NCBI GenBank assembly: GCA_949316235.1
Contig: OX438745.1
Location: 9,553,001 to 9,617,000, forward strand
Origin: Oegoconia quadripuncta
Taxonomy: Eukaryota; Arthropoda; Insecta; Lepidoptera; Autostichidae
Length of the DNA stretch: 64,000 nucleotides
Reading direction: 5' to 3'
Below the pieces are notes generated by a model. That model was not told where the DNA came from and did no database searches. It saw only the letters and a program-made list of their open reading frames with translations. Shown piece by piece: positions 6,070 through 55,679 of this stretch (positions are counted from its first letter, which is position 1; each line of letters begins with the position of its first letter). A program made the position numbers and the translations under genes.

Positions 6070-6141
6070 TTCCGATACCGGGAATCGAACCCGAGCCTCC
6101 TGGGTGAGAGCCAGGTATCCTAGCCACTAGACCATATCGGA
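6070..6141 (-). tRNA. tRNA-Glu (anticodon CTC)
   Basis: Minus-strand 72-nt cloverleaf: acceptor stem TCCGATA pairs exactly with TATCGGA, discriminator A at 6070; A box TGGTCTAGTGGCTAGGATA; anticodon loop in CTGGCTCTCACCCAG gives CTC; B box GGTTCGATTCCC. It matches the standard animal tRNA-Glu closely and, unlike the many tRNA-like SINE heads in this window, has a complete, paired acceptor stem and no SINE body after it. Confidence 0.93.
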
Positions 6142-22293: not shown

Positions 22294-23512
22294 CTAACTA
22301 GTGGTGGTATCATAAGGCATGTAACTGTTATAATTATTGTTAGTGTCGTAAGCTCTCCTGTATCCACCATGGTGACCGTGTTCATGTTCATGATGCTCCT
22401 CATGACTGTGGGAGTGATGATGGGAGACTTCAGGCTTCGTGATGATTTCGTATGTCGTCGATTTGTGACCACCGCTGCCTTTCAAACCGACCAGTGCCGA
22501 AAGTAGGAGTGACATAAGAGCAGTCATTAAAGCTTTTCCTGCTAATAATGCTAAAGCCCCTAAAGCAGCCGCTGCTAAAGTTCCTGAAACAAATAATGGT
22601 AATTTAATTAGTATTATAGTTAAGACGATAATCAATAGTATCTATATGTTGGAGTGATTTACAACTGATTCTTTCTTTTTTATATGTGAAGACATGACAA
22701 ATAACTTGTGACAAGGATATGAAGAATACAATCTCGTTGTGAATTATTATCATCTATTTTATTTATTTGCAATTACATATTATTATATTTGCAAATATTT
22801 TATGTATAAAAAATCAGAAACTAGTTGCAAAGAGTTAGTTAATTTATTTCTCGTCACATCTGAAATACACTCACTACTTTGAATCATATGGTTTCATGTA
22901 GATATTCTTAAATCTTTCATCAACATGACTAAATTAGTATATCTTACCCTTCATCATCAAAGCGGCTGCAAGTAGAGCACCACCGCCTCCTTTACCACCT
23001 CCGAAACCCCCACCCCCACCACCTCCTTTCCTTCCTACGGACTCTCGATCTCCTTTAGCCATGTCCATAGCCTCCTTCGTAGTTTGAGGATCAAGAAGCC
23101 TATATCTTAACGAATGCCCATCCAAGTAATCCTGCAAGCGGTAGAGCAGGAATCTGTTTAGCTTCTCTTCAGGTTTTCCAGGGAACTGTCTTGATAATTC
23201 CGCAGCCATTTCCTCAGCACTCGGGGTATTCGTTTGGTTCTCTCTCACTATACTTAATCCAGGTAGAAGTGAAAGTTCATCGCGAGAGCTCAAGTCTTCC
23301 AAAAAGGACAACACGTGAATTTTCAGACATTTTGCACTTAGATTTCCATTGCACTCTTTGTGGAGAGACCTTCCGGACCTGTCGTTGTTCGTCACGTTTT
23401 TCTCGATTTCGGGTATCGTATTCGGTTGTGATCCATCAATCACTCCGTTTGATGGGAACACGTAGCACAGTAACACTAATGACGCAACTACCGCTACATG
23501 TTTTCTAAACAT
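22294..23512 (-). CDS. Gene C: Osiris-family protein (DUF1676), 2 exons
   Basis: Exon 1 is 23512-22948 and exon 2 is 22583-22294, joined by a 364-base GTAAG...TTTCAG intron in phase 1 (284 aa). The true start is the ATG at 23512; the reading frame upstream of it has no ATG. Features in order: signal peptide 1-23 with hydrophobic core VAVVASLVLLCYVF; conserved C54 and C62 followed by LKIHVLSFLEDLSS; the DUF1676 block LNRFLLYRLQDYLDGHSL at 118-134; poly-Gly/Lys linker 160-178; a hydrophobic segment 178-222 containing the family signature [16 protein letters not shown]; and a C-terminal tail with STTYEI and a His-rich stretch (239-261), then Tyr/Asn. Osiris proteins are endomembrane/secreted proteins expressed during cuticle formation (family knowledge). 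The YE[IV] plus His tail suggests the Osi9-type group, but I cannot assign orthology. It is tandem with B and A, same strand. Confidence 0.93.
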
Positions 23513-37600: not shown

Positions 37601-40600
37601 GCTTAGACATATCCATCAGGTTTTAAAGAATTATTGAAATATTTATATTGGTCGGAAATTCGATCAAATGAGATATTATCATATTAACGAGCTTTGTTTA
37701 CACGTTCTGAAACTATTTGTTTTATTTTAAGCCGTATAAATCGGCTACGACGCTGTCGGTGATTGGTTCCCAATTCTTAGTTTATTCTTCAAGATAAGAT
37801 ACAAATTGTGACTTACAAGTCAACGGGTTTTTGTTAAACTAAATCTCTACAATAAAGTGTTAAGTAAGTGTTACATGTTATGGCGAAAAAGCGACGAGAA
37901 CCTCGATAATAACATATATTTTAAATATCTTGATAGATATTAGATAGACATATTTTAACATAGGTTGGTATAAATGTGGTTTTTTTTTTTTATATGAGAG
38001 GGCGGCAAACGAGCATGCGGGTCACCTGATGGAAAGCAATCACCGCCGCCCATGGACACCCGCAACACCAAAAGGGTCACAGATGCGTTGCCGGCCTTTG
38101 AGGAAGGAAGGTTATTCTTAATTAACAGAAATCTGCAAGATATTTTACCAAAAAAAAGATTTGCGGTTCGATAAATGAACTTTATGAAATACTTAAAATA
38201 CTACATACATTATAGCATTGTCTCACAAGAGTGCCTCAGTATGAGGCACCTTACCTATACCTTAGCACAATTCTGTTGTCGTTATTATATATATTATATA
38301 TAAATATTTATTTTGTACACCTATATATTTATGTTTGTATTTTGTTGCTATTTTATAGATTTTATAGATGTTAATCTTTAAGTAGGTATATTTGTCTATT
38401 GATCTATGTATGTATGTGTACGTAAAAATATATGAAAGTTATTCACGTATCTACATCCCTATTTAATACCGTACAATCTACCTATTTCAAATATACTGTT
38501 CTTATACCCAAAGGTTGCATGGAAGAGATCGCTTTTAGTGATAAGGTCGCCAAATTGTCCATTCTATTATTACCAGTTTTCTGAAACTATATTTTCCTTT
38601 CTGTTGTGCAATAAAGTGTATTTGTATTGTATTGTATTGTATTGTATGAGCTGCCGTTTTATTTACCTTTAAATTTATTTTACATTTTGTTGATTGTTTA
38701 AAAGAGACAAATCCCTGGCGGTTTAGCTTCACAGTCGTTTCATTTTCTCCATTTCTAAGTTACTACATAAAAATCTTTCACATTATATCATTGTCTCGCA
38801 TCAAGATTTCTGTATAAACTGCCTTTAGCAGGTTAATAATTCAACTTGTTGATTATTAAATTTTTTTAACAAAATATAAACGACTACACAGAGTCAGGCA
38901 CTACAAAAAAAATATTGAAATGCTCGTATCTCTCAATCAGTTATATTCCGTGCTCCTGTTGTAATTATTATTATTTCTATTATATGAAAAAATATCATTC
39001 GAACTCGGCGCTCCAATTGAATGTAAATCAATGTACATTATAATCACTGTTACACTTTTTTCATACAAACCCAAACTGTATCTATTAATAGTTTCCTTGT
39101 GCAAAATCTACACAATCGTCTAAATATGTAATGCTGTTGTTGCTGCTGTTAAACATCATCAGCTCATAAACATCCCCGTGCAGGGATATAGGCCTTCCAC
39201 GTACACGCCGGAAAATCGGCCTTAAACCACCACGCTGGCCAAATGCGGCTTGGGGACTTCATAAGCTGTTTACCATGATTGCGAAAAAACTACTGATCCA
39301 ATTGCGCTGAAATTACAATGGGACCAACTTGAGGGTATCCCCTTTCATTTACAAAAAGAATCATGTGAATCAATCGCCAAACGGCCGAATTGAGAACCTC
39401 CTCCTTTTTGAAGCTTCCTAACTGTTTTTTAGATTTATATGTTAGGAAATAAAAATTTTAGAAAATAAACTTAACTCGATGGGCTATTAGCGTTTTTAGA
39501 AGGAACACATCTGATTTCCACCTAGTTGAATGCGAAAGATAGAAATTTTGTTACCCAATTTTGATTTCATTGAAATATAGTATGATGGACTACTTATGTT
39601 ATTTTGTCCTGATTAACCCCCGACGTAACACAACGGGTGTTATTGGTGGCGTGCAGCTTCACCAACCAACCTTTTCTATATAGTTCACTTTTATATTAAT
39701 TTTGATATTAGTTTTTTAGGACTTTTGGCAGTTTGGTGAGTTGGTTGCCCAAGCTTGGTTATGGTATTTTATAAGTCGATTGTCAACCTATCTGCCACAT
39801 ATAAATAATAAATAAATATCTCTGCACATACACACAGCGCCATCTAGTTCCACACTAAGCAACTAGGCTTGTATTATGGATGCCAAATGGTTGATAAACT
39901 ACACGAATACATTTTTTTTGTAAATAAATACATATATAAATGAAAAACATCCATAACTCGGGAACACAATGTCTGTATTCATTATACAAACATATGCCCC
40001 GAGCGGGATTCAAACCCGCGACCTTTTGGTATAGCAGTCAGAGTTTCTGACCACTACACCAAACAGGTCGCCAGTAGTATAGCTTTTAAGTTCAATAAGT
40101 GCTACCATAACGTCTTATTTTATACGATGGTTTCAGTTATCCCATGACGGATATAGATGGGATCATAGCATAACATAGCATACGCAAAGGAATTAGAAGA
40201 ACATAACAATTCATTTGATATGTAATATGTGCATCGGCCTCAAAGTCTCATTCATTACCTATCATAAATTAATTAAATTATTTTTACCCGGCTGCTAAAG
40301 AAAGGATGGTAACGTTTTTCGTGTGTATGTATGTTTGTAAGTATGTACGTACATATGTATACATGTATATACATATGTATACATGTATATACCTATGTAT
40401 GATGATAAACAATCATAACCAGCCCGTTCGCATAACCAGGCTATTTCACAATTAATAATGAAATATTATAATATAAAATAATAATTTTGTAATATAACAA
40501 CCTTTTTTTAAAAGAGCGACCTCTCGAGTTTCTTGCTTGTTCTTCTCAGGGGAAAATTGCCTTTTGAACAAGCAGTAGCTTTAAAAATGTAAAATCTGAC

Positions 40601-43600
40601 TATTTTAAGTGTACCCTGTGTACGTACAAAATAAAGCATTTTTTGATTTTGATTTTGATTTTGATTATGTATGTATGTCTGTTCCTTTGGTGCATCCTGT
40701 AGCCTAAACGGCTTGACAGATGTCGAAGTGCATGATGTCGTTAAAAACGTCTTGATACGTGGAGTGTCAGATACATGTTATGGTAATAAAATCCAACATG
40801 GCGTCCGCAAAAAACGAAATATGCTGTCGGCTTTTGTGGTTTTTAAATTCTTTTATAGTTACGTGACGGAAACCACACGACACTATGAGTTTCCAAAAGA
40901 TGTCAAAGAAAAGTCGGACTTCTTGAAAAATAATATAAGTTATGTTTATGAGTTTACAAGCAAATACACAGTGAGCAACTATATTTTTTTTGTTTTACCT
41001 CCTTTTAAGCATCCTAGAAATTAATTTATCTCTTCTTATCTTAAGATCTTAAGATCTCTAAAAATATAATATACAAAGACATATGATACAACACTTGTGA
41101 TACTTTGTTAATTGGATGGGGAAGAGACTGGTTACCCACAACACAGGGAATCCTAGTGTGGGGACCAGGGCTACCTCATTATTTATATTGTAACTCTGTG
41201 TTTGACACAATAAATGATTTTTACATTTTTTTTGCCCTTTGTGGATTCCACAGGGTTATGTAAGATGGGCAAAGCATAATATTGTCCACGAGAAGTTGTC
41301 CGTCATCAAATCTAATCTTGAGTGAGAGTATCATGGTTAGAACATCCATTTCATTTGTTTAGAATCCTTTTTTACAGAATGGGTTAGCGCTAATGATGAG
41401 GCCAAAAGTGGAAGAGCGCTTCCCGGTATCCCCAACTTTTGGGGGGCTGGCTATGTTATGTCAAATGGCCGGAATACAAGGGTATTAACGACCTTTCATC
41501 TTTAAAAGCATACCGACGATTCAAACCCGCGACCTCCGTTCTGTATATCTTAAGCTGTTTACACCAAGCCACGCTGTGCACCAAGCCACGCTGTGCAAAG
41601 AGACGCCATTGCAACTAGTTCGTATTTAGTCATCTCCTTGCGCATATTAGATTCGTTTACGTCACATTTATTTTAAATCACGAAAGATTGCCGTCATTTG
41701 TTTGTCTGTCAAATTACAAAAAAATCCTATTCTAAGCATTGATTTATAATTAATTATTATTATTATCCGACTGTTTTTCGAGCGTATGTATATGTAGATT
41801 TCTTTATCGTCTGTAACTTTTACGGCTTGACCAACTTTAAAGTGCCAGGTATCGTTCGATTCACCTTGATCATTCTAGAATGTCATAGGCCTTCAATAAA
41901 AAAGGAGGAGATTTTATGTTCAGCTGTATTTATTTTTTTAAGGTCAAAAAATCAAACATGACATCAGCTAAACACAAAATATGCTATCGGGTTTTTAAAT
42001 AGCTATTTATGCCAATTTTAAATTCATTCACATCCCGTCTACTAGTTCTATTCCGTGGATTATCCCTGAACAAGGATCTTAGCATGGTGTCCAAAGAGAG
42101 TGCCACAGCGGCACCTGTCCTGGTCAACTTTAAAACCATACCGACGATTCAAACCCGCGGCCTCCGTTCTGTATATCTTAAGCTGTTTACACCAAGCCAC
42201 GCTGTTACAATTTTTACCCTAACGACGGATTTACAGATTATTAATCATAATAGAACATTAATAACACCATTGTTATAATCTTACTTGTAATAAGTCTGTC
42301 TCTGTAATGTGTCTAAATGCGTGAGCATAATAACATCTCACTAATAACTAATGCGAAAGTTTGGATGTTTGTTTCTTGCTTGCGAAACAGATGAACGGAT
42401 TGGGATGAAATTTGTTATATAGGTAGAATATACCCTCGATTAAGTCATAGGATAGTTTTTATCCCGATAAAAGAAGTAGTTCCGGGGGAATAAACAAATT
42501 AAACATATCCGCTATAAACTTATACTAACGCAGACGAAGCCGCGGGCGGAAAGCTATTTGTCGCACTAAAATCATAAGGTCGTTGAACATTATAATCGAG
42601 AGGAAGCTCGCTGGACTTTTACGCTGTGACTAAGCATGTTATTTTGATCATATTATTAGTTATCGTGGTTTCTATTTCGGAGTCAGAACGCTATGTAAAC
42701 GTGTTCCATACATTTACAACCATTTGACAGCAGAAATCAGAAACGAGAAAAACAAGGGTAGGTTATGTAAAAATCGTCTATTCTGTCAATCAGTCAGTTA
42801 GCTCAGTGAACGCTGATCAATACATAAATTGTAACATGTATTCTTTTTACTAAGGCGTACCTACTTTGTATTGACATTTGTACTGTGAATTATAGTCCTG
42901 ACCTCCCATAGACAAACCGATCAATTTGGTTTTGTGGGGTTAGCCTATGACCTATGATATGATGTATATGTATAATAAGGAAAAATAAATAAATAATAAT
43001 AATCTTTTGTCAACATAATTATGGACAGCAATTATTATGATCGTTTGGTAATTAAAAATGTCCTTAACGAGTTTCGAGTTCGACTGTATCAAGATAGATA
43101 TAGTAATAAAAGGAAGTTGATTTGCGTTAAAACAATCACTTGGTGCTGTCTTCAATACGTACCTTTCATCATTAATCCCATAGCCAGCAGTCCACCCATT
43201 CCCCCTTTCTTCCCTCCTCCCAAGACTCCTCCTTTCCCCCTTGCTTCACCAATCAACGCCCTGGCTTCCTCCGTAGCACTCTCATCCAGCAACCTTAGCT
43301 TCACTGAATGAGTGTCCAAGTAGGTTCCAAGTCTATACAGCAGGTACTTGTCTAGTCTCTCATCAGGTTTGGAAGGTAAAGCTCTTGCTAACTCCGCAGC
43401 GAACTCTTCAGCTTTGCTTCCATTTTCCTTAGTCGGTTCTTTAACGAGACTGACTCCTGGGAGAAGGTGAAGTTCTTCCTTCGCGTTTAACTTTTCCAGA
43501 ACGGATATCGCTTCAATTTTCAGACATGTGGGACTGAAGATTCCGTTCGAACAATCCTTGCCCATCGCTCTCGCAGCGGTTCCCACTGTTGGTTCGACAA

Positions 43601-43670
43601 CTTCAAGTGATTCTGGATTAGGCAAAGCAGTGGTACTGACCACTAAAACTAAAACGGATAACCGATACAT
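31677..43670 (-). CDS. Gene B: Osiris-family protein (DUF1676), 2 exons split by an 11.2-kb intron
   Basis: Exon 1 is 43670-43163 and exon 2 is 31930-31677 (253 aa); donor AAAG/GTACGT, acceptor TTTACAG/GT, phase 1 exactly as in gene C. Signal peptide 1-16 ([17 protein letters not shown]); C40 and C49 with [23 protein letters not shown]1676 block [18 protein letters not shown] at 106-123; Gly/Lys linker 145-160; hydrophobic segment 159-203 with [19 protein letters not shown]; tail [20 protein letters not shown], then Gly/Tyr/His and ending RRR. It shares roughly 60 % of exon-1 residues with gene A by eye. The long intron is mostly repeats. Linking these two exons is an inference from phase, signature and lack of any nearer candidate; the same acceptor could also serve gene A. 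Role: cuticle/apical-matrix trafficking by family, not shown here. Confidence 0.87.
31931..34334. other. Part of gene B intron 1, no recognised gene
   Basis: Only small repeat traces (32.92-33.08 and 33.32-33.40 kb). The 33.95-34.26 kb open frame has no recognisable domain. Confidence 0.4.
34335..34735. mobile_element. Nested foldback element, copy 1
   Basis: Ends AGGGTGAAATT... and ...AATTCACTCTGTATAAC. Internally CTGATTACGAACAACTTTCC and AACCATAGCCGAATTC are repeated in inverted orientation (GAATTCGGCTATGGTT, GGAAAGTTGTTCGTAATCAG). A shorter relative is at 36.2 kb. Confidence 0.7.
35770..36200. repeat. 213-base tandem duplication
   Basis: Unit with GTATCTATGGATATATAAAA, TCATTTATTAATATTGTTTA and TTTATGCAGTGTTTCTTTTC occurs twice (starts near 35781 and 35994), diverged by a few percent. 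Both units end before an AAACATCC-type RTE tail word. Confidence 0.75.
36228..36478. mobile_element. Foldback element, copy 2
   Basis: Outer ends ACAGGGTAAATTTG and AAATTCACCCTGTATAA-like. Inner inverted pair TTGACGCCACTCTTGATTA and AATCAAGAGTGGCGTCA. Same family as 34.3 kb. Confidence 0.7.
37195..37260. repeat. (ACACACAT)n microsatellite
   Basis: Runs of ACACACATAC and CACACACACA lying in the tail of a repeat (GTCCTTTTTCGTCGGGGCTC after it). A similar ACATACACATACATAC tract is beside gene A at 55.02 kb. Confidence 0.7.
37980..38110 (-). mobile_element. LINE-derived repeat, truncated
   Basis: Same start as at 54.04 kb (ATGAGAGGGCGGCAAACGAG, CACCCGCAACACCAAAAGGG), cut at TTTGAGGAAGG. Confidence 0.65.
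38455..38650 (+). repeat. LINE-type 3' tail with (GTATT)n end
   Basis: CCCAAAGGTTGCATGGAAGA, TTTTAGTGATAAGG and GTGCAATAAAGTG followed by TTGTATTGTATTGTATTG. Close relative at 56.42-56.56 kb. Confidence 0.6.
39798..40070 (-). mobile_element. tRNA-like SINE, family 2, full length
   Basis: Minus-strand copy: head at right (inverted GGTCGCGGGTTTGAATCCCG and GGTGTAGTGGTCAGAAAC), body AGCGCCATCTAGTTCCACAC, (AAATA)n at left. In gene B intron 1. Confidence 0.8.
40320..40670 (+). mobile_element. (ATGT)n tract followed by LINE-type 3' end
   Basis: 40.32-40.40 kb is an alternating GTATGT/ACATGTATAT simple repeat. 40.40-40.67 kb is the plus-strand copy of the 7.7-kb element, ending in (TTTTGA)n. Confidence 0.7.
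41375..41605 (-). mobile_element. Diverged family-1 SINE
   Basis: GGGGGGCTGGCTATGTTATG, then the inverted tRNA-like head with TTCAAACCCGCGACCTCCG. Ends in a short duplication of ACCAAGCCACGCTGTGC. A head-only copy lies at 42128-42205. Confidence 0.6.
42330..42560 (+). mobile_element. RTE-like 3' tail
   Basis: CTAATGCGAAAGTTTGGATG, GAAACAGATGAACGGATTGG and GAAGCCGCGGGCGGAAAGCT in order, as at 21.3 kb. Confidence 0.6.
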
Positions 43671-43723
43671 TTTGGAATAAAAAAAACCACCACGTCTGAA
43701 CTGCGTCGAATGCGGTTACACTT

Positions 43724-43756
43724 TGATAAGACAATTCTTTCGTTCAGCTTTTTATA
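43724..43756 (-). promoter_or_regulatory. Probable core promoter of gene B
   Basis: TATAAAAAG on the minus strand at 43756-43748, with an ATCAAAG initiator-like site about 32 bases on (A at 43724). A second CAGTTCA at 43703-43697 resembles the initiator of gene C and could be the real start. The ATG is at 43670. Confidence 0.55.
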
Positions 43757-44636
43757 TGTCTCACATAGTTGGATGATTAGTACGAAGTGCTCTTGCATCC
43801 ATTATATTTTCATAGAAGACTGATTGCAAAAAGACATTAATAATCGACGCTGATTTGTACCTTGTGTGTGTTGGAACACGGCGTATTTTTGATGGCGCAG
43901 CTTTAGAGTGTAAGGCTTTGGGTCATTATCGCAAGCAGCCATCGAAGTAGAGGGAACTGATATAAATGTCTATATTTTTTTACCTTTTTTCGGTATTAGT
44001 TCATACATTTGTATTGATACATGTCGAATTATCGTACAAGCGTTTCATCGAAGTATAGGTAGTAAAAGTATCTGCATATTTCATTCTAGTCTAGTAGACA
44101 GATCCTGCCTCCGAAACAATGGTTGGGGATTCAAAACCCGTTAGGTGTAGATGGAGTGATTAAGTTCCCGAGCTATTTATGTATATTTATTCGCCATCTA
44201 GTTTGTCTAATTTGGGACTTAAAAATTGGTGTCGTACGCATAGTCCTATAGACCGATGTTTATGAATATGTTCCTTAGCTTACTTAGAGCGCACTAAGAA
44301 AAGGTTTTGTAAAATTCCCACAGGAACGAGAGAAACGGGATCAGCACATATAACATCTCGGGGCGCTTTCGGTTTATGTTAAAGAAAATTTTACTCTAAG
44401 CAGATAATTCGTACACAAAATTATTTAGGAATTAGCAAAGTCACTGTGTTGTTACATTACCTAGAGATTATCATCTTTTGAATCTCAATTTATGATTCAA
44501 TTTCACTTTCAGTCGGAAGTTCGCCATCCGTAACCAAAAAAGTTAGTCTCGGTGAAGAACTCAATTTGAAACATTTCTTTCAATGATGGATAATCACCAC
44601 TCCGATCTACTTTGCTCCTGCTTCATGGTGAAATTA
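43757..44636. other. Upstream flank of gene B, no gene seen
   Basis: Searched specifically for a second exon belonging to gene A (GKALMT-type signature on the minus strand) without success. No repeat family recognised in most of it. Confidence 0.4.
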
Positions 44637-45224
44637 TTCATCATCATATCAGCCACAAGACGTCAACTTTTGAATATGGTCCTCCTCGATAGATTTCCAT
44701 AGGGTTGGAAGCTGCCTGTGTCCAGCGACTTACCTCAACTTTCATTAAGTCGTCCGTCCACCTTGCGGTTGCAGGAGCGTGGTCTCCACTTAATAATCCG
44801 CTCGGCGATGTAGTTGACTTTCCGTTTTCTACAAATTATTTCATTACTGATTGTATCCCATAATTAAATTATCAAGGACAAGACTAGTGACAGACTAGTG
44901 ATGCAAAGTTACGTAATTTTATCAAAAACGTTGGTAAAAAACGGATATTTTACGGTAATTTAAATTAAGGTAAAATTACCGGCGATTTAAGACGTTTTAA
45001 ATTTTAATTTGTTTTAAAACCCTTATGCGACGTTGCCGATTATGGCAGTCCGCCATATATATTGTTGCCGTATGTAGCCCCCTTCTTTTAGAATCGACGT
45101 AGTCGGGTAAGAACCAAATATTTTCCAAACAGTTAAACCGATTTTGATCAAACTTGATTATGAATGGGGGTTCAAAACCGAAAAACTCGACAGTATATTT
45201 CATATTATGAGGACGTCATGTTGA

Positions 45225-45505
45225 ATTCATTATCATCATCATCATCAGCCCGTAAACATTCCCACTGCAGGGATATAGGCCTTCCCTCGTATAATGAGGG
45301 AGTATGGGCCATAGTGCACCACGCTGGCCCAATGCGGGTTGGACTTCACATGCCTTTGAATTTTATTTCTCAGGCATGAAAGTTTCCTCACGATGATTAA
45401 ATTTAAAAAGTCATTGATACATGGCCTGCCTGGGAATCGAACCCGGACCTCCCAAATTGGAAGACCGCGTCTTAACCGCTGAGCCACCGTCGCTCTCGAC
45501 GACCG
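45225..45505 (-). mobile_element. tRNA-like SINE, family 4
   Basis: Minus-strand head GGTGGCTCAGCGGTTAAGAC and GGTCCGGGTTCGATTCCCAG, body with CGTGGTGCACTATGGCC-like and CCTATATCCCTGCAGTGG. (CAT)n at its left end. A headless relative is at 53.28-53.47 kb, and the 3.66-kb head piece is also this family. Confidence 0.72.
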
Positions 45506-46027
45506 CACCGACGACATGTTGGATTATTTACCATAAAATGTATCCTATGACACTTTGAGGATCAAAACAAATCTAACGGTACCTTGCGGGAAGTCGCTGG
45601 ATGCAGGCCGTTTCCAAACGGTCACCCTGGAATTTTATGGGGGAGGCCGAAGTTTAGCAGTGGACGTCCTGTGGCTGATTATGATGATGATGAACGGCAC
45701 CTTGCACTATAAAGTCGGTCATGTCGTTTAGGCTCCACGAGGAAACATAGAAAGCTACATACATACACTCCAAATACTAACTTCCTCCGGTTAATTAAAC
45801 GACTTATTTCTCGTAAGTTAATCAAAAATGTTTATGCGACATACATCCTTTTCATACCGAGGAAAAAAGTAAAAATTGGACATTGGACTGCCCAAGGCCA
45901 ATGCTGCATTAATGTACACTTGCAGCTGTAAGCTGATGCGTGATATAGATGTCTAAAAATATATTATCCAATTGTATGTACCTATATTTAATGTAAAAAT
46001 GAGATGTACCTATAATGGTATACTGAA

Positions 46028-46185
46028 TTACACTACCCCGGAAAACTGACCGAGGAACGATTAATCGAATCGGAGTACATTGCGGAGTTTGTTTTAATTA
46101 AAATTTTTAATGTAGAACAAACTCCGCAATGTACTCGATTTTCGATTAAACGTTCTTCAGTCAAACGTTTTTCGGTGTAGTGTAA
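46028..46185. mobile_element. Short TIR element (MITE)
   Basis: Almost entirely a hairpin: TTACACTACCCCGGAAAAC at the left is mirrored by TTTTTCGGTGTAGTGTAA at the right, and AGTACATTGCGGAGTTTGTT by AACAAACTCCGCAATGTACT in the centre. Confidence 0.75.
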
Positions 46186-46704
46186 TCGGTACACAATTTA
46201 TACATCCGTAAAAATATGGACTTATATAATAATATGTAAGTAATTGAATATAATTTATTATTATATAATTAATATTACTAAAAGCTTTTTATATATAAAG
46301 TCCCAGGAATCACACGCACTAGCATACACACTCATGCACACTAAAATACGAACGCTGAACGCATACAGATATACACAAACACTCTTTAACCGACTTTAAT
46401 TGTATAATGAACTACTCATGTTTACTTAATTTATTGTACAATACAATACAATACAAATACACTTTATTGCAAAACAGACAAGAAAATACAGTTTCAGAAA
46501 AGTGGTAAGAATAGAATGTACAATTTAATTTATTGTACGTTTGTTTCATTTACGCAAATTAGTCATAAAAGAGCGGGGTCTCCTGGTTGTGCCAGGATAA
46601 TTAAAAGAAGTCCCTCGGTCATACATTGTAACAGAATATCAAGCTACTGAATAAATGATTTTTCATTTTTATTTTTTTCATTATGTTCTCAATTAAATTT
46701 TTTT

Positions 46705-47032
46705 TTTTATGCACGACGGGTTCGTACTTGACCTCAATCACACCTGATGTTAAGTGAAGATGAGGTCGAAGGTGGAAGCGTACTAACCCGGAAACCCCAA
46801 CACATTTGGGGGACTGGTTATCTTATCTCTGACAACCGGACCACAACAATGCTATTAACATTGCTGCTTGGCGGCAGATTTAGATAAGATGGTGGTAGCT
46901 AGCCAGGCGAACATTTTAAAATGCCCTACCACCAACCAAACCGAGTAATTAAACATGTACCCCGCTGGGGATCGAACCCGCGACCTCCGAATCGTAAACT
47001 CAGTGTTGTTTACATTGAGCCACGGAGGCGGT
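46705..47032 (-). mobile_element. tRNA-like SINE, family 1, full length
   Basis: From TTTATGCACGACGGGTTCGT to the inverted head CCGCTGGGGATCGAACCCGC and GAGCCACGGAGGCGG. The cleanest family-1 copy in the window. Confidence 0.82.
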
Positions 47033-47509
47033 TTAAAAATACGCTCCGAATACAGAACCTCCTCGTTTTTTTGAAGTCGGTCAAAAAGAACGTAAGTCGC
47101 ATAAAGATTTTGATTAACTTTAAGGTTTACGTCTAAATAAATACGGCTGAATTCACTATACGACTTATGTCCGTAACACAAGCTTTGCCTAGTTTGAGGC
47201 CAGAGTAAGTGTCCGATATTTTGATTTATTTTTATTTTATAATCTCTAATATAACTATAATCACTTTCTCCAAATTGGCTGCTAATCAACTGTCATTTTC
47301 TATATTCCAGACCTCATCAATGTGAAGGTGGAGTGACGGACGAAGAACGACGTAATTACGATACTAAATAATTATTTGGCACCTCATAGCGGGAAGGATG
47401 GATACAAACTGTCCCATAATGGAGCACTGGACCAGGCTGTACCTAAATGGTGTGGTGTGTGCGGATAAGGTAGTTCCTGGTGCAATAATTGCATGTGTAC
47501 ATCACACAT

Positions 47510-47765
47510 TAACGACTTGTTTGGTGTAGTGGTTAGCAACTCTGACCACTATACCAAAAGGTTGCGGGTTCAAATCCCGCTAGGGGCATATGTTTGTGTG
47601 ATGAAAACGGACATGTGTACACGAGTTATGGATGCTTTCATTTATAATAAGTATTTATTTACAAAAAAAAATGTATCTCTGGTATCCACAACACAAGCCT
47701 ATAGTTGCTTACTGTGGAACTAGATGGCGCTGTGTGTATGTCAAGAATATTTATTATTTATTATT
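47510..47765 (+). mobile_element. tRNA-like SINE, family 2, full length
   Basis: GACTTGTTTGGTGTAGTGGT head, B box GGTTGCGGGTTCAAATCCC, body to GTGGAACTAGATGGCGCTGT and (ATT)n. It lies next to the 47.85-kb inverted repeat. Confidence 0.8.
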
Positions 47766-47846
47766 ATTATTTCTATTTTCAATTTCTTTTTCTCAGCATG
47801 AGCTGGTATTATCATACCATTTACGGGCATTAACCAAGTAAATGGT

Positions 47847-48462
47847 ATCCCACCAAAAACATTCTGTAAAAAACTAGCCAAGTCTCGATGGAGCTGCTTG
47901 ATTATCTCTAAAAAGTAATGAAATCTATACAAAGTCGTGCCAAGTGTAAGGTTCCTTACTGCGATTTCTTTATTATTATAGTTAATGTTGTGTGACTTGG
48001 CCGTTGAAGGGTACACAGGGGTACAAAACCAGGTGCTCCATGACACCATTGCACCAATCTGTCGCCAGAACCGCTATTAATGTTATTAAGAATGTTCAAC
48101 GGCAAACTATTAGCGAATAATCTGTGTGGCGTTTACATAACATTCTTTATACGTTAGTGGCTTTATCAAGCCTACAATTGACTGGTTGTTGAATCAACGT
48201 TATCCAAGTGGCAATTTTCCATCGTCAATGCGTAGCGGTTCTGGCGACAGATTGGTGCAATGGTGTCATGGAGCACCTGGTTTTGTACCCCTGTGTACCC
48301 TTCAACGGCCAAGTCACACAACATTAACTATAATAATAAAGAAATCGCAGTAAGGAACCTTACACTTGGCACGACTTTGTATAGATTTCATTACTTTTTA
48401 GAGATAATCAAGCAGCTCCATCGAGACTTGGCTAGTTTTTTACAGAATGTTTTTGGTGGGAT
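47847..48462. repeat. Perfect large inverted repeat (230-base arms)
   Basis: Arms 47847-48076 and 48233-48462 have equal length and read as exact reverse complements, around a 156-base spacer. Both arms carry the same incidental open frame, in opposite orientation. A transcript across it would form a long hairpin. No terminal target duplication or TE family recognised. Confidence 0.88.
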
Positions 48463-48473
48463 TTCACTTCTTT

Positions 48474-48520
48474 TTGTAGAAACGTGGGCATATTATATAT
48501 ATGCCCACGTTTCTACAAAT
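48474..48520. repeat. Near-perfect 47-base palindrome
   Basis: TGTAGAAACGTGGGCATAT is followed, across a TA-rich centre, by ATATGCCCACGTTTCTACA. Only the central bases break symmetry. It abuts the 3' side of the OTU fragment. Confidence 0.8.
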
Positions 48521-48658
48521 ATACTTGATACTGAAAGTTGAGTCAGTTCTACCATACACCAAGAAAGATATTGAATGGAAGAGACAAGACCCGTCTTTGA
48601 GCATACCAACTACTTGGTAGCCACTAAGTTCATCGTCGTCTTTTAATATTATCGACAT
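48475..48658 (-). pseudogene. OTU-type cysteine protease N-terminal fragment, probably from a mobile element
   Basis: Frame starting at ATG 48658 encodes DDDELSGYQVVGMLKDGSCL followed by FHSISFLVYG. The D-G-S-C-L-F motif is the catalytic Asp/Cys block of OTU deubiquitinase folds. OTU domains carried by insect transposons have this organisation (family knowledge). The frame runs into the palindrome after about 50 residues and stops, so the catalytic His half is absent. Upstream, a 0.7-kb leader and promoter-like sequence are on the same strand. It is a fragment, not a working enzyme. Confidence 0.6.
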
Positions 48659-49344
48659 TTTTTACGATAATTATTATCTTGCGAAATCAAACACAATTAA
48701 ACTCAACGACCTTTAGTATATGGACAACAAATCAGAAATACCGATAATATTTAGACTAAAACCTACTTATATCTTTAAGACTTCTTTTGTCTTAATAATA
48801 AAAACTTAAAGAAAATATTACTCTGCCTACTCAATCTATACAAACTATAAGCAAAACGTTAACTCTTAATTATTAGACAAGTGTCAATATAATTAATTAT
48901 CAATGAACTTTCTACCAAAGGTACTACCTACCTAGTACTGAAATACAGCTAAATTAATGATATTTTTAAACGAAACGAAGTAATATCTAACTAAATAAAC
49001 TAAACTAGAATACTAGAAAAGTACTTATAAACACGAACGCGATTCGAAGTACTGCCTAACTGTAAATTAAACCTAGAAAACTAAAAGTAGGTACTAAATA
49101 ATTAACAATTAAATAAAGTATTCAATTGAAACTTCTTTTAATTCTGATAATTAAGTAATAATCAGTAATCCGTCACTAACCATATAATTCCTAACCTATT
49201 TAAATCTTTGAATTAATATAATAACAACCTGCCAATTAACCTTAGCAAACCTCACGAAATAATCAGCGAAATCAACGAAATGCAAATAATCCCTCCTAAT
49301 CCCTAGCAAACATTTTCAAGCGCAATAGAAGAATGTCGTAAACG

Positions 49345-49381
49345 ACTGTAACGCGGCCGGTTGTCCCTTTGCCATATAAGG
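49345..49381 (-). promoter_or_regulatory. Promoter-like sequence upstream of the OTU fragment
   Basis: Minus strand: CCTTATATGG (TATA-like, also a perfect CArG-type word) at 49381-49372, and TACAGTCG with the initiator A at 49347, 31 bases after the TATA start. From about 49.33 down to 48.68 kb the plus strand is notably G-poor, as expected for a transcribed leader with strand bias. Confidence 0.35.
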
Positions 49382-49599
49382 TTATCGGAAAAACAAAACT
49401 TAAGCGCGTTTTAAAATACAGTCAACGCCATCTAGCGACGCGTGCGGGTATCACCGCCACTCTTAGCCAATGCATTATATTTTGACCAAATTTTCGTTTG
49501 TTTATTTAATTTGTGTAATGTTCGAGTAGAATAAAATTAATCGTTTGACTATTTCTTCTTGTAAACTTGTAATAAGTATAAGTAAGTATAAGTATAAAA

Positions 49600-50110
49600 G
49601 CCAGTCTAGTCTTATCCAGAGTTTTCCTTTAATTTTATTTATATTCGTATTAAAAGCAGAAGGGGAGGCATTCGCCCAGCAGTGGGACGCTACCATATCT
49701 CTAATACAGCTGAGACCAGCTGAGGGTTCTTCATCAGATACTTCAGACCTTCGATTTTTGACATCAAATGAAGCGGCCCACCAAGTTGAATATTTTTTGT
49801 AAAGGCGGTATATGTCGATCTCTAATAGTTTGGTTGGGCTCTTGTGTTTCCTAATCAGGGTCACCAGGTACTCCAGATCTTCGATTATCCTAGTTTTTAT
49901 AGTTTTCCCTTTATGTGGCCATTGAACCATAACTCTGTACCAAATTTCAGCTCTCTGAGTTTATGGGAAATACTAGTTCTATTTTGATGATCATGAGTGA
50001 GTGAGTGAGTGAGTGAGTGTCATAAATGCGAAACTTTGCTTTCGCTTAACTTCGGAACTAAATGACCTACAGACTTGAAATTTTGGATTTTAAGTATGTG
50101 ATTATAGCTT
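49600..50110 (-). repeat. Interspersed repeat with (GAGT)n
   Basis: Block with GGCATTCGCCCAGCAGTGGG, GATACTTCAGACCTTCG, then (GAGT)n at 49995-50020 and CATAAATGCGAAACTTTGCT. Looks like a lepidopteran non-autonomous element. No conserved reading frame. Confidence 0.45.
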
Positions 50111-50339
50111 ACTGGATGACGAAAATTTCTGCGTTCTAGTCTTATCCAGAGGTTCTAAAATAGGGGCCTGAAAATGCCGCGAAATGGTTCCAGTAAAGGA
50201 TGGTACGGCAGTGTTTGCTTCGCGCTCGACTTGGCGGGGGCACTGCCGTGCCCCCAGATATTCCTATTTATTTTAAAATCGTAAGTCAGTCCGTTTATTA
50301 TTATTATTATTATTATCACAATTTAACATAATTTTAATT

Positions 50340-50460
50340 TATATCACTATTATTAGATTAGATTATGTCAGGATCGTAGCAAGTGGAAGTCTGTTGTCTC
50401 TGCCTACCCCTACGGGAAACAGGCGTGACAATATGTATGTATGTATGTATGTAGATTGTG
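50340..50460. repeat. Repeat tail with (ATGT)n
   Basis: GGATCGTAGCAAGTGGAAGT, CTACCCCTACGGGAAACAGG and TATGTATGTATGTATG in order, a typical interspersed-repeat end. Nothing else recognised up to 50.9 kb. Confidence 0.45.
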
Positions 50461-51175
50461 AAATCGTCTGGCTAGCGAGTTGGTGTATCCAAATAGTCTG
50501 ATATTTTATAATGCTTTCTTAAAGAGGAGAAGAGGCCCCAACTATGGGGACAAAATATGATATGATAATAATAAGAATACATATTTCGGACAGTTCCACT
50601 AATAATCCTTGTCCAATAATAAACTACAATAATCTTGTCCCAAACTAAGCAAAGCTTGTACACTGGACAGTAGATTACGGATAAACATACATAAATGATA
50701 CTGATTATATATTTCTGTATTTATTACTTAGTTATTGTATTTCTAAGTTAAGTGCTTATTACTTTAGTAAAACTTAGCAAACAGGTACTCTACATCTGCC
50801 AGTGATATGTTCAGTTATGATAGTCGAAATTTTAATCGAATCGAATAGAATTTTTAGCTACAAGAGGTTAGCGTTTGACTTCAATCACAAACATACAGTT
50901 TCATTACGACTTTCATCCCAAATGGGGTGGTCAGATATATTCCAAACATTCACTTTGGGTGTTCCAAACATTAAAAGTTTAATGCTTCAGACAACATCCA
51001 CGGTTCTCTCTCTTCTATTTAAGAGCTATGCTCTTGTCGGTGGAGACCTTTCACACTTCTCTACATTCCGCCTTTTCTTTAATTTCCTGATACGACACGG
51101 AATTTACTTTTTCCTTTACTTGAACCATGTATGTTTTTCTAGGCCTCACGGTTCAACTTTTGAAATTTTAGGTCC

Positions 51176-51561
51176 TTACCTATGAAATTGGCGTTTTGTA
51201 TTAAGAATTTCATTGAGACTGTTTTCTCCATATAAACATTTTTGATTTTTTTTTGGGAACGGCAAATCCAAATTTAGCTAAACTTTGTGTGTATTATCGG
51301 ATAACATTAAGTTAAGTATATGACCGCTTTATAAAAGTTTCAGCGAATCTAAGAAATGATTATGGAAGCACATGAAAAGAGCTCTGTTCAATTTTTTTTT
51401 ATTATGTGATCTAGCCCAGAAATTAAAAAAATATTTTATGTGAAAACCTTGAAATATTATTCCATTTTCCAAATAAAAAACAAATTTGGATATAGCTTTG
51501 AAAATCGAAGGAATTGGTACATATGATTAACGCAGAAAAAAAACTCCAATTTCATAGGTAA
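51176..51561. mobile_element. Non-autonomous TIR element (MITE), copy 2
   Basis: TTACCTATGAAATTGGCG at left, CCAATTTCATAGGTAA at right. The interior matches 2860-3259 in inverted orientation, including AATCCAAATTTAGCTAAAC and AATGATTATGGAAGCACATG. Confidence 0.75.
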
Positions 51562-51684
51562 AGAGCCAATATTATAATTGAATATATTGGACTCCACACA
51601 TCCAGTGAAGTGTTAAGAATTAACACGTTATCACAACCGTATTGTGTATTTGTGTATGTATTTGTATCATGTATTTGTGTATAT

Positions 51685-51900
51685 GTTGACGATCTGTTTG
51701 GTCCAGTGGTTAGAGAACCAGACCGATATGTCTATAGGTTGCGGGTTCGAATCCGCGTAAGGTCGCCAAATTGTACGTTGTACTCTTACGTGACTCTCTG
51801 TAATTGTATTTTCTTTTCTATTGTGTAATGTAGTGTATATGTAAACACTAATGTTTGGGATGTCTCTGACCACCCCATTTGGGATACAGGTCGTGACGTT
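51685..51900 (+). mobile_element. tRNA-like SINE head plus repeat tail
   Basis: GATCTGTTTGGTCCAGTGGT and GGTTGCGGGTTCGAATCCGC form A and B boxes, but the body is not family 2. It continues into GTCGCCAAATTGTACG and TCTCTGACCACCCCATTTGG, a different 3' tail. Confidence 0.55.
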
Positions 51901-52439
51901 ATGTATGTATGGGAAATATCGGTATTTAAAATTTTGATACCTCTATGTTTGGAGTCGTTTAATAAGCCGGGAAGTGCGTGGAAATCTATTACAGCTGAAT
52001 AATAAACTCTTAGAAGCGACAAGCAACGGTTGGCAAGATAATTGTGATAAAGATTAATGTATTTCGAATTGGTTCATGACCACATACTCATAAATAAAAG
52101 ATTTTTATCATACACGTAGCGCGTGCGCTTTCTGATCTACATGTTGTCCGCTCAATTAAAGTAAATTTTGACTTTTTGCCGCTTCAGAGTAAAAGTGAAA
52201 TTGAATTACATTTTGATGCTTACATGTTGGAACGTATGTACATTTTATTTTGAAACGACTTCAAAGAAATTCCAAAATCGAGGCGTATTTAGCAGATGGC
52301 ATTAACCTTTTTGTTATATTTATTTATGCACAGGAATACTTTGTTCAGGCATAAGTGTTATATGTAAGTAGGTAAGTGTTACTTTTAAAGTCTAAGACTC
52401 CCCAGAGAAGAACGAGCAAGAAACTTAGGGGTTCTTAAT

Positions 52440-53000
52440 TCTTTATTGCACAAGAAATACAAACAGATAACAGTTAGAAAATAAATGTAAGCTCATCTCT
52501 AAATGCTCTTACTCTTTTTAAATAAGTATTTTTACAATTTATGATTCGACAATGAAAAAGAAAGAAATTAATAGACGAATATCGCCGAGCAGTTCATGCA
52601 TTCTTATCATCCATATAGTCAGAAATTTTATAATAGCCTTCGGCATATAGATTCCGTTTAATTGTGGTTTTAAATTTATTTAAAGGGAAAGGACTTGTCC
52701 CAGATTGGTTTTTTAATATTTATTAATTCCGACAGGGTTAGGTTATACATATCTGGATGACTTATTGTCTTTGTGTAAGCGACTGCTATGCACAGCAAAT
52801 TTATTTTTATTTCTTGTATTTACATTATGTATTTTACAATTTTTCCTAAACAATTGCAGATTCTTTCTAACGAACATTAAGTTTTCGTAAATATATTGCG
52901 ATGCCAATGTTAACATATTGAATTCTTTAAATTTATTCCTCAGAGATATTCTGAAGCCTAACTAGATCGTACGAACCGCTTGCTTCTGCAGAACAAAAAT
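52440..53000 (-). mobile_element. Decayed non-LTR retrotransposon 3' part
   Basis: Aligns by eye with 6.48-6.96 kb (TTGTGTAAGCGACTG, CAAATTTATTTTTAT, ATTTTTCCTAAACAA) but with more stops. Left end is a LINE tail (TTCTTTATTGCACAAG). Confidence 0.5.
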
Positions 53001-54029
53001 ACAATTTAATGTCTGCGGCATTTCCCCATAACAGGATACCATATCATGCTATAAAAAATGCTGAAGTAAACCAGCCTCGCGGTGTGCACATCGGTTAAAT
53101 AACGTTTTTAATAGCGAATACTGCAGAATTGAGAGATGTCGACAATCTTTCAATATGTGGACCCCATTGTAGTCCTTTACCCAACATACAACCTAGGAGT
53201 AGAATAGTGTCCACAAGCTGTCCAAAACTGTGTTTATTTTACTTTAATTTCATTACTTATGTGCATTTATCCGACTGCTATTAAACGGTAAAGCTAAACA
53301 TCGTGAGGAAACCTGCATACCTGAGAATTAAAAATTCTAAGGCATGAGAAGTCTCCAACCCGCATTGGGCCAGCGTGTGGACTATGTATAGAACTATATA
53401 TATATACATACTATACTCCCTCATTATACGAGGGAAGACCTATATCACTGCAGTGGAATGTTTACGGTCTGAGTTAATGAATTAAGATTTTTAATTTTTA
53501 TCAGAATGGAAAAGAGATGGTCGGAGTTTAAACAAAAATGAGCTGAGCTAAGGAAATGCAAGAGATGCAAGGTAAATTATTTCAAGCCCTATGTAATATA
53601 GAATAAATTAAGTATCCGTAGTGAAAGTTATCGTAAATATTATACATAATGTATGTGTGCTCATAATATTAATTAGTTTGGAATACCACATGCAATTAGC
53701 TTTTGTTTTGTCTCATGAACAGATTAAATTAATGTGTTGCTCATGTTTAAAGCTTATGAAAAGCTTCTATTTGAATTTAAATTACGTATCTAGATAGTTT
53801 CGTATATTCATTGGTGTCTGTCTTGAACACGTTCCGAGACACATCACCAGACACAATAGATGTTTTATTATTAATACGTCTAGAGGCGTAATGTGTCCCG
53901 GAGCGTGGTAATCTGAATAATAATAAAGAATTGAAGAGGACATAAACCGTCCAGCGGCGCCATCGTTAGATAAATTAAGATTTCATATTCAATAGCTTTA
54001 TTGAAAATAAAAAAAAATGCTTATTTTTT

Positions 54030-54370
54030 TTTATTTTTATTTTTTATGAGAGGGCGGCAAACGAGCATGCGGGTCACCTGATGGAAAGCAATCACCGCCG
54101 CCCATGGACACCCGCAACACCAAAAGGGTCACAGTTGCGTTGCCGGCCTTTGAGGAAGGTGTAGGCTCGTTTCTTGAAGGTTCCAATGTCGTACTCGTTC
54201 GGGAATACCGCTGCCGGAAGTCCGTTCCACAGGGTGGTCGTACGTGGTAAGAAGTTTCTTGAGAAACGTACAGTGGTAGACTTCCACTCATCCAGGTAAT
54301 GTGGATGGAAATTTAATGATGTGGAGAAGTGTATCGGTTAAATTGAGCAGCGGGTATTAGCTCGATAGCA
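54030..54370 (-). mobile_element. LINE-derived repeat, longest copy
   Basis: Runs from the poly-T/ATGAGAGGGCGGCAAACGAG end to AGTGTATCGGTTAAATTGAG. An 84-codon open frame on the minus strand is shared with the 15.75-kb copy, but neither looks like a known domain in that frame. Confidence 0.65.
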
Positions 54371-55113
54371 TAAATCAAAAATAAAATAAAATGATCTGAC
54401 CTGCACTCAAAAAGCCTTTAAGATAATTATAAATAACACCTAAATCCCTTTAATTACGCCTATTTTCGTGTATTTAAAATTATTGATTTATAATTGTGAA
54501 TTCGGGAAAATAAGCCCCTTCAAATCTGTTTATTTAATTAAATTAGCTTTTTAACTTCTCGAGTCATTTTTTTGATTTATTCTATATTTAAAAAGTAATC
54601 TTAATTTATCTAATGAAGACACGGAATAAACCCTCTTAAGGAATGATCCTACTGGATCATGATGGCGGGTTATAAATTTGTTTAGTCAGAAATCACTCAA
54701 TATCATAAATAATCAAAGGGTGCTCAAATGATCGATTATTATCAGCAAGCAGAATAACTATAAAAAGAAAATTTTAAAAAGCGAAGGACAAATTTCACCC
54801 AAAAATATACCAACCAAATTATATTAAAAACTGAATATCTTCGTAGTGGCTTAACCGATTTTTATCAAACATAGCTAAGAACCTTTACCCTAGTTTAATC
54901 CGCCGCCGCATAGTTTAATAGTTTACCCTAGTTAATAAAATTAAGTTAATAGAACAAGAAACAGCACTCAAGTCGGACTACGCATTACTGAGATACATCC
55001 GGACAAAGACTGGACACATACACATACATACATAACGCCGTCAAACACATATAAAACCCCTCGTTTTTCATTGATATAATTTTGTTCAAGAATTAAATAA
55101 AAAAAAAACTTAC
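54371..55113. other. Start of gene A intron, no exon found
   Basis: AT-rich with one (CATA)n tract at 55.02 kb. No acceptor followed by an Osiris-like hydrophobic segment on the minus strand. Confidence 0.4.
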
Positions 55114-55603
55114 CCTTCATCATCATAGCCATCGCGATGATTAATCCCATACCGCCTTTTTTACTTCCCATTCCTAAAGGACCTCTCGCTCTTCCTTCAC
55201 TGATCATAGTCCTTGCTTCAGCTGCTGATGACTCATCCAGCAACCTTAGTTTCACTGAATGACTATCCAAGAAGGTTTCCAAGGAGTATAGAAGATATTT
55301 GTCTAGTCTTTCATCTGGTTCTGAAAATTTGACTAGATCAGCAGCAACAGCTTCAGTTTGTCCACTGTCACCATCTTTAACAAGAGATACACCAGGAACC
55401 AATGGAAGCTCATTCTTCGCATTCAATTTTTCTATTAAACTTATAACCCCAATTTTAAGACAAGTGGGATTGAAAACTCCTTTGGCACAGTCTTTTTTCA
55501 TCACACGGGCAGCATTTTCAATTGTCTGTGGTATTTCGGGATTTGGCAACGCGATTACGTAAGATATTGAAGTTAGAACTAGTATTTTGAACATTTTCGA
55601 CAT
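55114..55603 (-). CDS. Gene A: Osiris-family first exon (DUF1676); partner exon not found
   Basis: An intact exon of 163 codons plus one base, starting at ATG 55603 (55594 is an alternative) and ending at a perfect donor, AAGG/GTAAGT, at 55114/55113, phase 1 as in B and C. It holds a signal peptide (MSKMFKILVLTSISYVIALP), C39 and C48 with LKIGVISLIEKLNAK, the DUF1676 block LDKYLLYSLETFLDSHSV at 100-117, and the start of the hydrophobic segment (GLIIAMAMMMKG). Very similar to gene B exon 1, so a tandem duplicate. I found no GKALMT-type second exon on the minus strand between 55.1 and 43.7 kb. The nearest compatible acceptor I see is gene B exon 2 at 31930. Either the first exons are alternatives sharing that exon, or A's second exon has been lost or changed beyond recognition. 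Confidence 0.82.
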
Positions 55604-55643: not shown

Positions 55644-55679
55644 ACTGTGTTCCATATTTTAACCACCTTCCTTTTTATA
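55644..55679 (-). promoter_or_regulatory. Core promoter of gene A: TATA box and initiator
   Basis: TATAAAAAG at 55679-55671 on the minus strand and CACAGTA at 55649-55643, with the initiator A 33 bases after the TATA start. The ATG at 55603 is about 43 bases downstream. This intact promoter argues that the A exon is expressed. Confidence 0.62.

What the first reader, a model, noticed from the sequence alone, without database searches (positions are those of the whole stretch)
55114..55603. Intact Osiris first exon without a second exon: shared 3' exon or half-dead duplicate?
Gene A exon 1 is fully open, has a signal peptide, conserved cysteines, a TATA/initiator pair and a perfect GTAAGT donor in the same phase as B and C. 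Yet the 11.4 kb down to gene B exon 1 shows no hydrophobic GKALMT-type exon on the minus strand. The closest matching acceptor is gene B exon 2 at 31930, 23 kb away, after gene B's own first exon. So A and B may be alternative first exons of one locus sharing a C-terminal exon, giving two N-terminal DUF1676 domains on one tail.
Basis: partly seen in the sequence, partly recalled or inferred. Interest (0 to 1): 0.75.

Follow-up and report, generated by a model that had tools for sequence, protein, structure and literature searches.

The report
Two Osiris starts sharing one end
In this moth or butterfly genome, two separately promoted first exons of an Osiris gene (a family of insect cuticle-related proteins) most likely splice to one shared last exon, so that one gene makes two proteins with different front halves and the same tail, an arrangement that gene annotations of three other moth species also show.

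Summary
First exon A (55114-55603, minus strand) is intact: signal-peptide-like start, two cysteines, TATA box, GTAAGT donor in phase 1. No Osiris tail exon lies between it and gene B's first exon. A tail profile finds two convincing copies in the 64 kb: at 31930 (B) and 22583 (C).

In Spodoptera litura, Achroia grisella and Anticarsia gemmatalis an A-type and a B-type protein are annotated as isoforms X2 and X1 of one gene. Their heads are 51-57% identical, their 83-residue tails identical. A-type exons form one clade. Of 43 single-domain A-type relatives, 5 carry a tail, always this type; none has another Osiris tail. A half-dead duplicate is unlikely.

Not shown: transcripts in this species, or the reads behind the annotated isoforms. 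Nine annotated relatives list A as a short separate gene. A Bombyx cDNA study saw no Bmosi16 transcription. Four gene models chain A, B and tail into one protein, probably an artefact. I saw no paper on shared-tail Osiris isoforms in the listings searched.

The parts
55671..55679 (-). TATA box (TATAAAAAG) of first exon A
   Evidence: 76 bases upstream of the ATG
55114..55603 (-). alternative first exon A: 163 whole codons plus one base; signal-peptide-like start, two cysteines, N-terminal part of DUF1676; donor GTAAGT at 55113-55108
31931..55113 (-). inferred intron of the A isoform (23.2 kb), which contains B's promoter and first exon
   Evidence: inferred from matching phase, the absence of any other tail exon before it and isoforms in relatives
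43748..43756 (-). TATA box (TATAAAAAG) of first exon B
   Evidence: 86 bases upstream of the ATG
43163..43670 (-). alternative first exon B: 169 whole codons plus one base; donor GTACGT
31931..43162 (-). intron of the B isoform (11.2 kb)
31677..31930 (-). shared second exon (coding part with stop): rest of DUF1676, hydrophobic GKALMT segment, Tyr/His-rich tail; acceptor CATTTTCTTTACAG

Best explanation
A and B are two alternative, separately promoted first exons of one Osiris gene (named Osiris 16 in some relatives) that share the second exon at 31930-31677. Each first exon supplies its own signal peptide, two-cysteine region and most of DUF1676. The common exon supplies the end of DUF1676, the hydrophobic segment and the tail. 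Isoform choice is probably promoter choice. A transcript started at A's TATA box passes through B's first exon, which normally has no 3' splice site, so A's phase-1 donor joins the next good acceptor at 31930 and B's first exon is removed with the 23.2 kb intron. A transcript started at B gives the B isoform. Shown: intact exons, phase and sites, one tail exon for two heads, and the same two-head isoforms annotated in three other moths. Inferred: that this species transcribes and splices A this way, and that promoter choice rather than regulated splicing decides.
For: Three species have A-type and B-type proteins annotated as isoforms X2 and X1 of one gene ID: S. litura LOC111357194, Achroia grisella LOC131845512, Anticarsia gemmatalis LOC142983726. 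First-exon identity is 91/160, 89/163 and 79/155, while tails are 83/83 identical in all three. Two more A-type proteins have this kind of tail (Chilo P0019, H. armigera P0021); the nearest tails among the other 38 are 78/83 and 82/83, the same species' B protein not being in hand. Of 43 single-domain A-type rows, 5 have a tail and 0 have any other GKA-type tail. Joining A to the exon at 31930 keeps the frame (247 aa) and raises the DUF1676 match from 60.4 bits (positions 1-133) to 107.6 bits (1-169 of 170); reading A through into its intron instead gives 65.2 bits (1-142). The window has three heads and two tails. A-type exons form one clade (100/95 for 31 rows; SH-aLRT 93 for 47 rows). A against B differences by codon position are 49, 40 and 88 of 160 codons; NG86 dN 0.34, dS 1.90. 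A and B each have a TATA box.
Against: No RNA evidence was available, and the annotated isoforms are models whose read support I could not inspect. Nine A-type proteins from annotated genomes stop just after the junction as separate genes: Loxostege, Manduca LOC115452902, Cydia strobilella, T. ni, Bombyx mandarina, Scirpophaga, Galleria, Amyelois, Epargyreus. In three of these (Galleria, Amyelois, Epargyreus) the junction reads K|V rather than K|G, which I cannot explain without their DNA. Four other models chain A, B and tail. A Bombyx full-length cDNA study found no evidence of Bmosi16 transcription (PMC3755909, passages). A's donor would also fit C's acceptor at 22583 in phase; that join was not scored against Pfam. 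dS between A and B is near saturation, and their dN/dS mixes both lineages.
Confidence: 0.87

Rival explanations
1. A is a half-dead duplicate: an Osiris copy that lost its second exon and is decaying.
For: No private tail exon between A and B, and the 11.4 kb after A holds dispersed and inverted repeats of the sort that interrupt genes.
Against: Open frame, donor, TATA box and conserved residues are all intact. A-type exons form one clade with 26 invariant columns over 30 sequences. Tailed A isoforms exist in other species.
Confidence: 0.03
2. A is a free-standing short gene that makes a secreted, tail-less Osiris head ending a few codons into its intron or in a small private exon.
For: Nine annotated genomes list the A-type head as its own short protein. 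Intron read-through in the window would add 47 codons before a stop.
Against: What follows the junction differs widely among species. In 30 of 38 tail-less rows the residue after the junction Gly is K (8), E (11), M (6) or T (5), as read-through of GTAAG, GTGAG, GTATG or GTACN donors would give (residues; the DNA was not seen, and T also begins the real tail). The other 8: two end at the junction Gly, three have another residue after it, three have V in place of Gly. This points to conserved donors, not conserved ends.
Confidence: 0.05
3. A has a private tail exon that is too diverged to recognise, or A joins the tail of gene C at 22583.
For: C's acceptor has the same phase, and joining A to it keeps the frame.
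Against: No tail-like peptide between A and B above noise. In the 3 species with both isoforms under one gene ID the A tail is identical to the B tail. The acceptor at 31930 comes first.
Confidence: 0.03
4. A is joined to B's first exon through an acceptor inside B's coding sequence, giving one protein with two N-terminal domains and one tail.
For: Four annotated proteins (Mythimna, Dendrolimus, Manduca O3G_MSEX014357, Arctia) have this form, and a partial one (Operophtera) joins A to B. Pfam finds two DUF1676 stretches in the two that I scanned (P0084, P0086). The window's B exon has 15 in-frame AG sites, two of them in the signal-peptide part at 43649 and 43643.
Against: The junction falls at a different place in B's signal peptide in each of the four, as expected when gene finders force a coding exon into one model. 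For Manduca, NCBI lists A and B as separate genes instead (P0006, P0112). The two signal-peptide sites have 10 and 11 pyrimidines of 16; the best tract of the 15, 13 of 16 at 43454, lies inside the domain. The 31930 acceptor has 14 of 16 by the same count (by hand).
Confidence: 0.05

Closest known systems
Lepidopteran Osiris 16-type genes with isoforms X1 and X2 (S. litura LOC111357194, Achroia LOC131845512, Anticarsia LOC142983726)
   Same: Two different DUF1676 heads on one identical tail under one gene ID.
   Different: In this window the arrangement is inferred from genomic DNA only. Intron sizes in those species were not seen. The name Osiris 16 is given in rows to other relatives (for example P0021, P0053, P0062, P0103); in the text shown I did not see it for these three.
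Osiris gene cluster (Dorer 2003, recalled; Shah 2012 = PMC3284338, passages seen)
   Same: Signal-peptide-like start, two cysteines, DUF1676, hydrophobic segment; three heads on one strand here.
   Different: The passages seen describe growth by gene duplication. Here only the promoter and first exon are doubled. The AQXLAY motif is absent from these tails (0 of 43).
Drosophila Osi19-A and Osi19-B isoforms (PMC9870157, passage)
   Same: An Osiris gene with two protein isoforms.
   Different: Those differ by 9 residues, not by whole alternative first exons.
Variable-first-exon loci such as mammalian UGT1A (recalled, no call)
   Same: Several promoter-driven first exons splice to common downstream exons.
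   Different: Unrelated proteins; two heads here, more in UGT1A.

Membership tests
Osiris family (five features listed in PMC3284338, passages) | N-terminal hydrophobic, signal-peptide-like region | tested here: met
   Visible in MSKMFKILVLTSISYVIALPNPE; by inspection only, no signal-peptide predictor was run
Osiris family (five features listed in PMC3284338, passages) | two-cysteine region | tested here: met
   C39 and C48 invariant in 30 A-type sequences
Osiris family (five features listed in PMC3284338, passages) | DUF1676 (PF07898) | tested here: met
   A alone 60.4 bits, A joined to the shared exon 107.6 bits, cut-off 24.3
Osiris family (five features listed in PMC3284338, passages) | hydrophobic putative transmembrane domain | tested here: inconclusive
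   Hydrophobic GKALMT stretch present in exon 2; no transmembrane predictor run; structure models of relatives poor (mean pLDDT 47.7 and 47.4)
Osiris family (five features listed in PMC3284338, passages) | AQXLAY motif with nearby tyrosines | tested here: not met
   No AQ in the window's tail and no AQ.LAY string in 43 relatives' tails or in 121 proteins, including ones named Osiris 16. The paper says the domains are found in most, not all, members. So I call this an Osiris-type gene by DUF1676 and named relatives, not by all five features.
One gene with alternative first exons | each first exon has its own core promoter | tested here: inconclusive
   TATAAAAAG 76 and 86 bases upstream of the two ATGs; no start-site data
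One gene with alternative first exons | transcripts joining each first exon to the common exon | not testable with these tools
   No RNA data for this species; annotated isoforms in three relatives

The most novel reading that the evidence does not exclude
Besides the two ordinary isoforms, B's first exon is sometimes spliced in as a middle exon after A, giving a secreted or membrane protein with two tandem DUF1676 heads on one tail, as gene models in four other moths predict.
Probability: 0.06. Interest if true: 0.65.

Novelty: new variant of a known kind. Interest (0 to 1): 0.45.

Why it matters
The Osiris family is described, in the passages I saw, as having grown by gene duplication. Here a promoter and first exon were kept in duplicate, apparently since before several moth families split, while the membrane-side tail stayed single. 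If confirmed, it gives a natural head-swap for testing what the DUF1676 head and the tail each do. It would also explain why annotations of several moths show an orphan Osiris head or an implausible double-headed protein, and it may bear on the remark that Bmosi16 could be misannotated (PMC3755909).

Tried and rejected
Searching for a private second exon of A: permissive tblastn and a tail HMM gave none. Beyond the tails at 31930 and 22583, the best HMM hit was a methionine-rich stretch at 16069-16227 (13.1 bits, E 0.015), downstream of gene C. Pfam gives it only a sub-threshold DUF1676 match.

Structure prediction of the A-type and B-type isoforms of S. litura (P0011, P0031) gave mean pLDDT 47.7 and 47.4, too poor to use; no fold search was made. 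The promoter scan is a bacterial model and was ignored. YN00 dN/dS failed with a numerical error; only NG86 is reported. Search of the window's own genome did not complete.

In the 129-row tree my pattern split the Manduca double protein P0086 at the wrong place (first part 108 aa), so its two rows are unreliable. I did not rerun that tree; the row P0086a is inside the counted clade of 47, so that count rests on 46 sound rows. P0086 is not among the 43 single-domain rows. Two scripts stopped with an error after printing the part used; one search repeats the junction table. The printout was cut inside the A query's weak hits. Counts from the second protein search rest on the 120 rows listed of 133, from 7998 scored candidates. 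One protein search and one paper search were left unused.

Full report
What is there. The minus strand carries three Osiris-type first exons: A (55603-55114), B (43670-43163) and C (23512-22948). It carries two convincing second exons: one at 31930-31677 and one starting at 22583. C's second exon follows after a 364-base intron. A has none before B. The A donor (AAG G|GTAAGT), the B donor (AAA G|GTACGT), the C donor and both acceptors are in phase 1. The A frame is open for 163 codons (chance about 7e-6 at the flanking composition) and differs from B's mostly at third codon positions: 49, 40 and 88 differences of 160 aligned codons; NG86 dN 0.34, dS 1.90, the latter near saturation. A and B have TATAAAAAG at 76 and 86 bases before the ATG. 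The nonamer occurs 8 times in the window against 3.2 expected, 3 of 100 shuffles reaching 8.

The missing exon is really missing. An HMM built from 43 tails (39 distinct) of relatives was run over 3492 six-frame peptides of 12 aa or more in the window. It finds the B tail (175.5 bits), the C tail (93.8 bits) and then a weak 13.1-bit methionine-rich stretch at 16.1 kb, downstream of C. In 43.7-55.1 kb the best scores are 3.9 bits (minus strand, E 11) and 5.4 bits (plus strand, E 3.6), which is noise.

Completing the domain. A alone matches DUF1676 over profile positions 1-133 of 170 at 60.4 bits. Joined in phase to the exon at 31930 it matches 1-169 at 107.6 bits; read through into its intron it matches 1-142 at 65.2 bits. 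The B protein gives 113.9 bits. The join of A to C's tail was translated but not scored.

Relatives. Two protein searches, with A alone (83 hits) and with an alignment of 30 A-type sequences (133 hits, 120 listed), gave 121 proteins; every row whose name shows a species is from Lepidoptera (taxonomy recalled, except Achroia). The decisive rows are isoform pairs under one gene ID: S. litura LOC111357194 X2/X1, Achroia grisella LOC131845512 X2/X1 and Anticarsia gemmatalis LOC142983726 X2/X1. First exons are 91/160, 89/163 and 79/155 identical; tails are 83/83 identical in all three pairs. That is what one shared exon gives and what two old paralogous exons would not give without conversion. Chilo P0019 and H. 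armigera P0021 are further A-type proteins with this tail type; their own species' B proteins were not in hand.

Age and constraint. In a careful tree of 87 rows the A-type exons form one clade of 31 rows with support 100/95. In a quick tree of 129 rows the clade has 47 rows with SH-aLRT 93, just under the tool's star mark of 95, plus two uncertain rows beside it (one of the 47, from Manduca, was cut wrongly). By source names it includes Cydia, Achroia, Galleria, Amyelois, Chilo, Loxostege, Scirpophaga, Manduca, Bombyx mandarina, Dendrolimus, Operophtera, T. ni, Spodoptera, Helicoverpa, Mythimna, Arctia, Anticarsia and, on a long branch, the skipper Epargyreus. So the second head is older than the split of these families (families recalled). 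No listed species name reaches outside Lepidoptera, but the search is word-limited. The root, on a long branch to C, is unsure, so I do not say where the duplication began.

The rows against. Of 43 single-domain A-type rows in that part of the tree, 5 have the tail and 38 do not. Nine of the 38 are from annotated genomes as separate short genes; the other 29 are unnamed contigs. What follows the junction differs widely. In 30 of 38 the residue after the junction glycine is K (8), E (11), M (6) or T (5), as reading through a GTAAG, GTGAG, GTATG or GTACN donor would give; I saw no DNA for these. Of the other 8, two end at the glycine, three have N, D or V after it, and three (Galleria, Amyelois, Epargyreus) have V in its place. 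Five more proteins join A to B: four complete (Mythimna, Dendrolimus, Manduca O3G, Arctia) and one partial (Operophtera). In the four complete ones the junction falls at different places in B's signal peptide, and for Manduca the NCBI models give two genes instead. I take both groups as annotation behaviour around a head that has no nearby tail, but only RNA can settle it.

Same contig. By equal contig lengths, A-only and B proteins lie on one contig in T. ni, Manduca, Cydia strobilella, B. mandarina, Amyelois, Scirpophaga and Epargyreus. Two unnamed contigs of 6500 and 3810 bases appear to hold both heads (P0046/P0057, P0065/P0098). Equal length is taken as the same contig; this was not checked in DNA.

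Mechanism. A first exon has no acceptor, so a transcript from A's promoter should skip B's first exon without any special regulator, and the donor should meet 31930 next. Promoter choice would then set the head. This is inference from exon anatomy; acceptor strength was judged only by the pyrimidine tract (14 of 16 at 31930, by hand; 10 and 11 of 16 for the two AG sites in B's signal-peptide part).

Literature. Passages of PMC3284338 (five family features, duplication, Osiris 9 copies in Bombyx), PMC3755909 (Bombyx full-length cDNA: Bmosi2 and Bmosi16 without evidence of transcription, 'may be pseudogenes or misannotated'), PMC9870157 (Osi19 isoforms differing by 9 residues), PMC11151929 (Osi16 expression in Drosophila antenna, mutant without obvious phenotype), PMC12825958, PMC9552441 and PMC7084798 were seen through term searches; none was read whole. 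Nine paper searches showed no title or abstract opening about shared-tail Osiris genes. Two returned nothing, and two listed only a part (20 of 3,160, 15 of 25,593). The library holds open-licence papers only, so this is weak evidence of absence.

Verdict. The arrangement already exists as isoforms in public annotation. It is a new variant within the Osiris family rather than a new kind of system.

Noticed in passing
47840-48469: A near-perfect inverted repeat: 237-base arms, 99% complementary, 156 bases apart, in the A-B interval; looks like a fold-back element.
   Followed up: no
37948-38121 and 53979-54164: The same translated stretch ([29 protein letters not shown]) occurs in B's intron and in the A-B interval, so a dispersed repeat has entered both (ORF list).
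   Followed up: no
16069-16227 and about 18326-18463, minus strand: Glycine- and methionine-rich pieces with weak DUF1676 matches (E 0.049 and 0.018, below cut-off) that may be parts of a further, very diverged Osiris gene downstream of C.
   Followed up: partly
22294-23512, minus strand: Gene C is a two-exon Osiris-type gene with a 364-base intron, in contrast to the 11 and 23 kb introns of B and A.
   Followed up: partly
P0058, P0070, P0074, P0116, P0117 (Phthorimaea, Tuta): These moths have several copies of this gene with differing tails of their own, so whole-gene duplication also happens. Two Tuta proteins with different heads, P0097 (no tail) and P0117 (tail), carry one gene name, g6471, which may be another shared or misjoined case.
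   Followed up: no
P0044 (Ostrinia furnacalis LOC114366381 isoform X1): A B-type protein named isoform X1; its other isoform was not among the listed hits, so it could be a fourth two-head case.
   Followed up: no
6070-6141, minus strand: A tRNA gene (Rfam RF00005, 64 bits).
   Followed up: no
47509-47577 and 51686-51754: Two 69-base copies, 75% alike, ending GGTTGCGGGTTC(A/G)AATCC, which resembles part of a tRNA-derived SINE (resemblance recalled).
   Followed up: no
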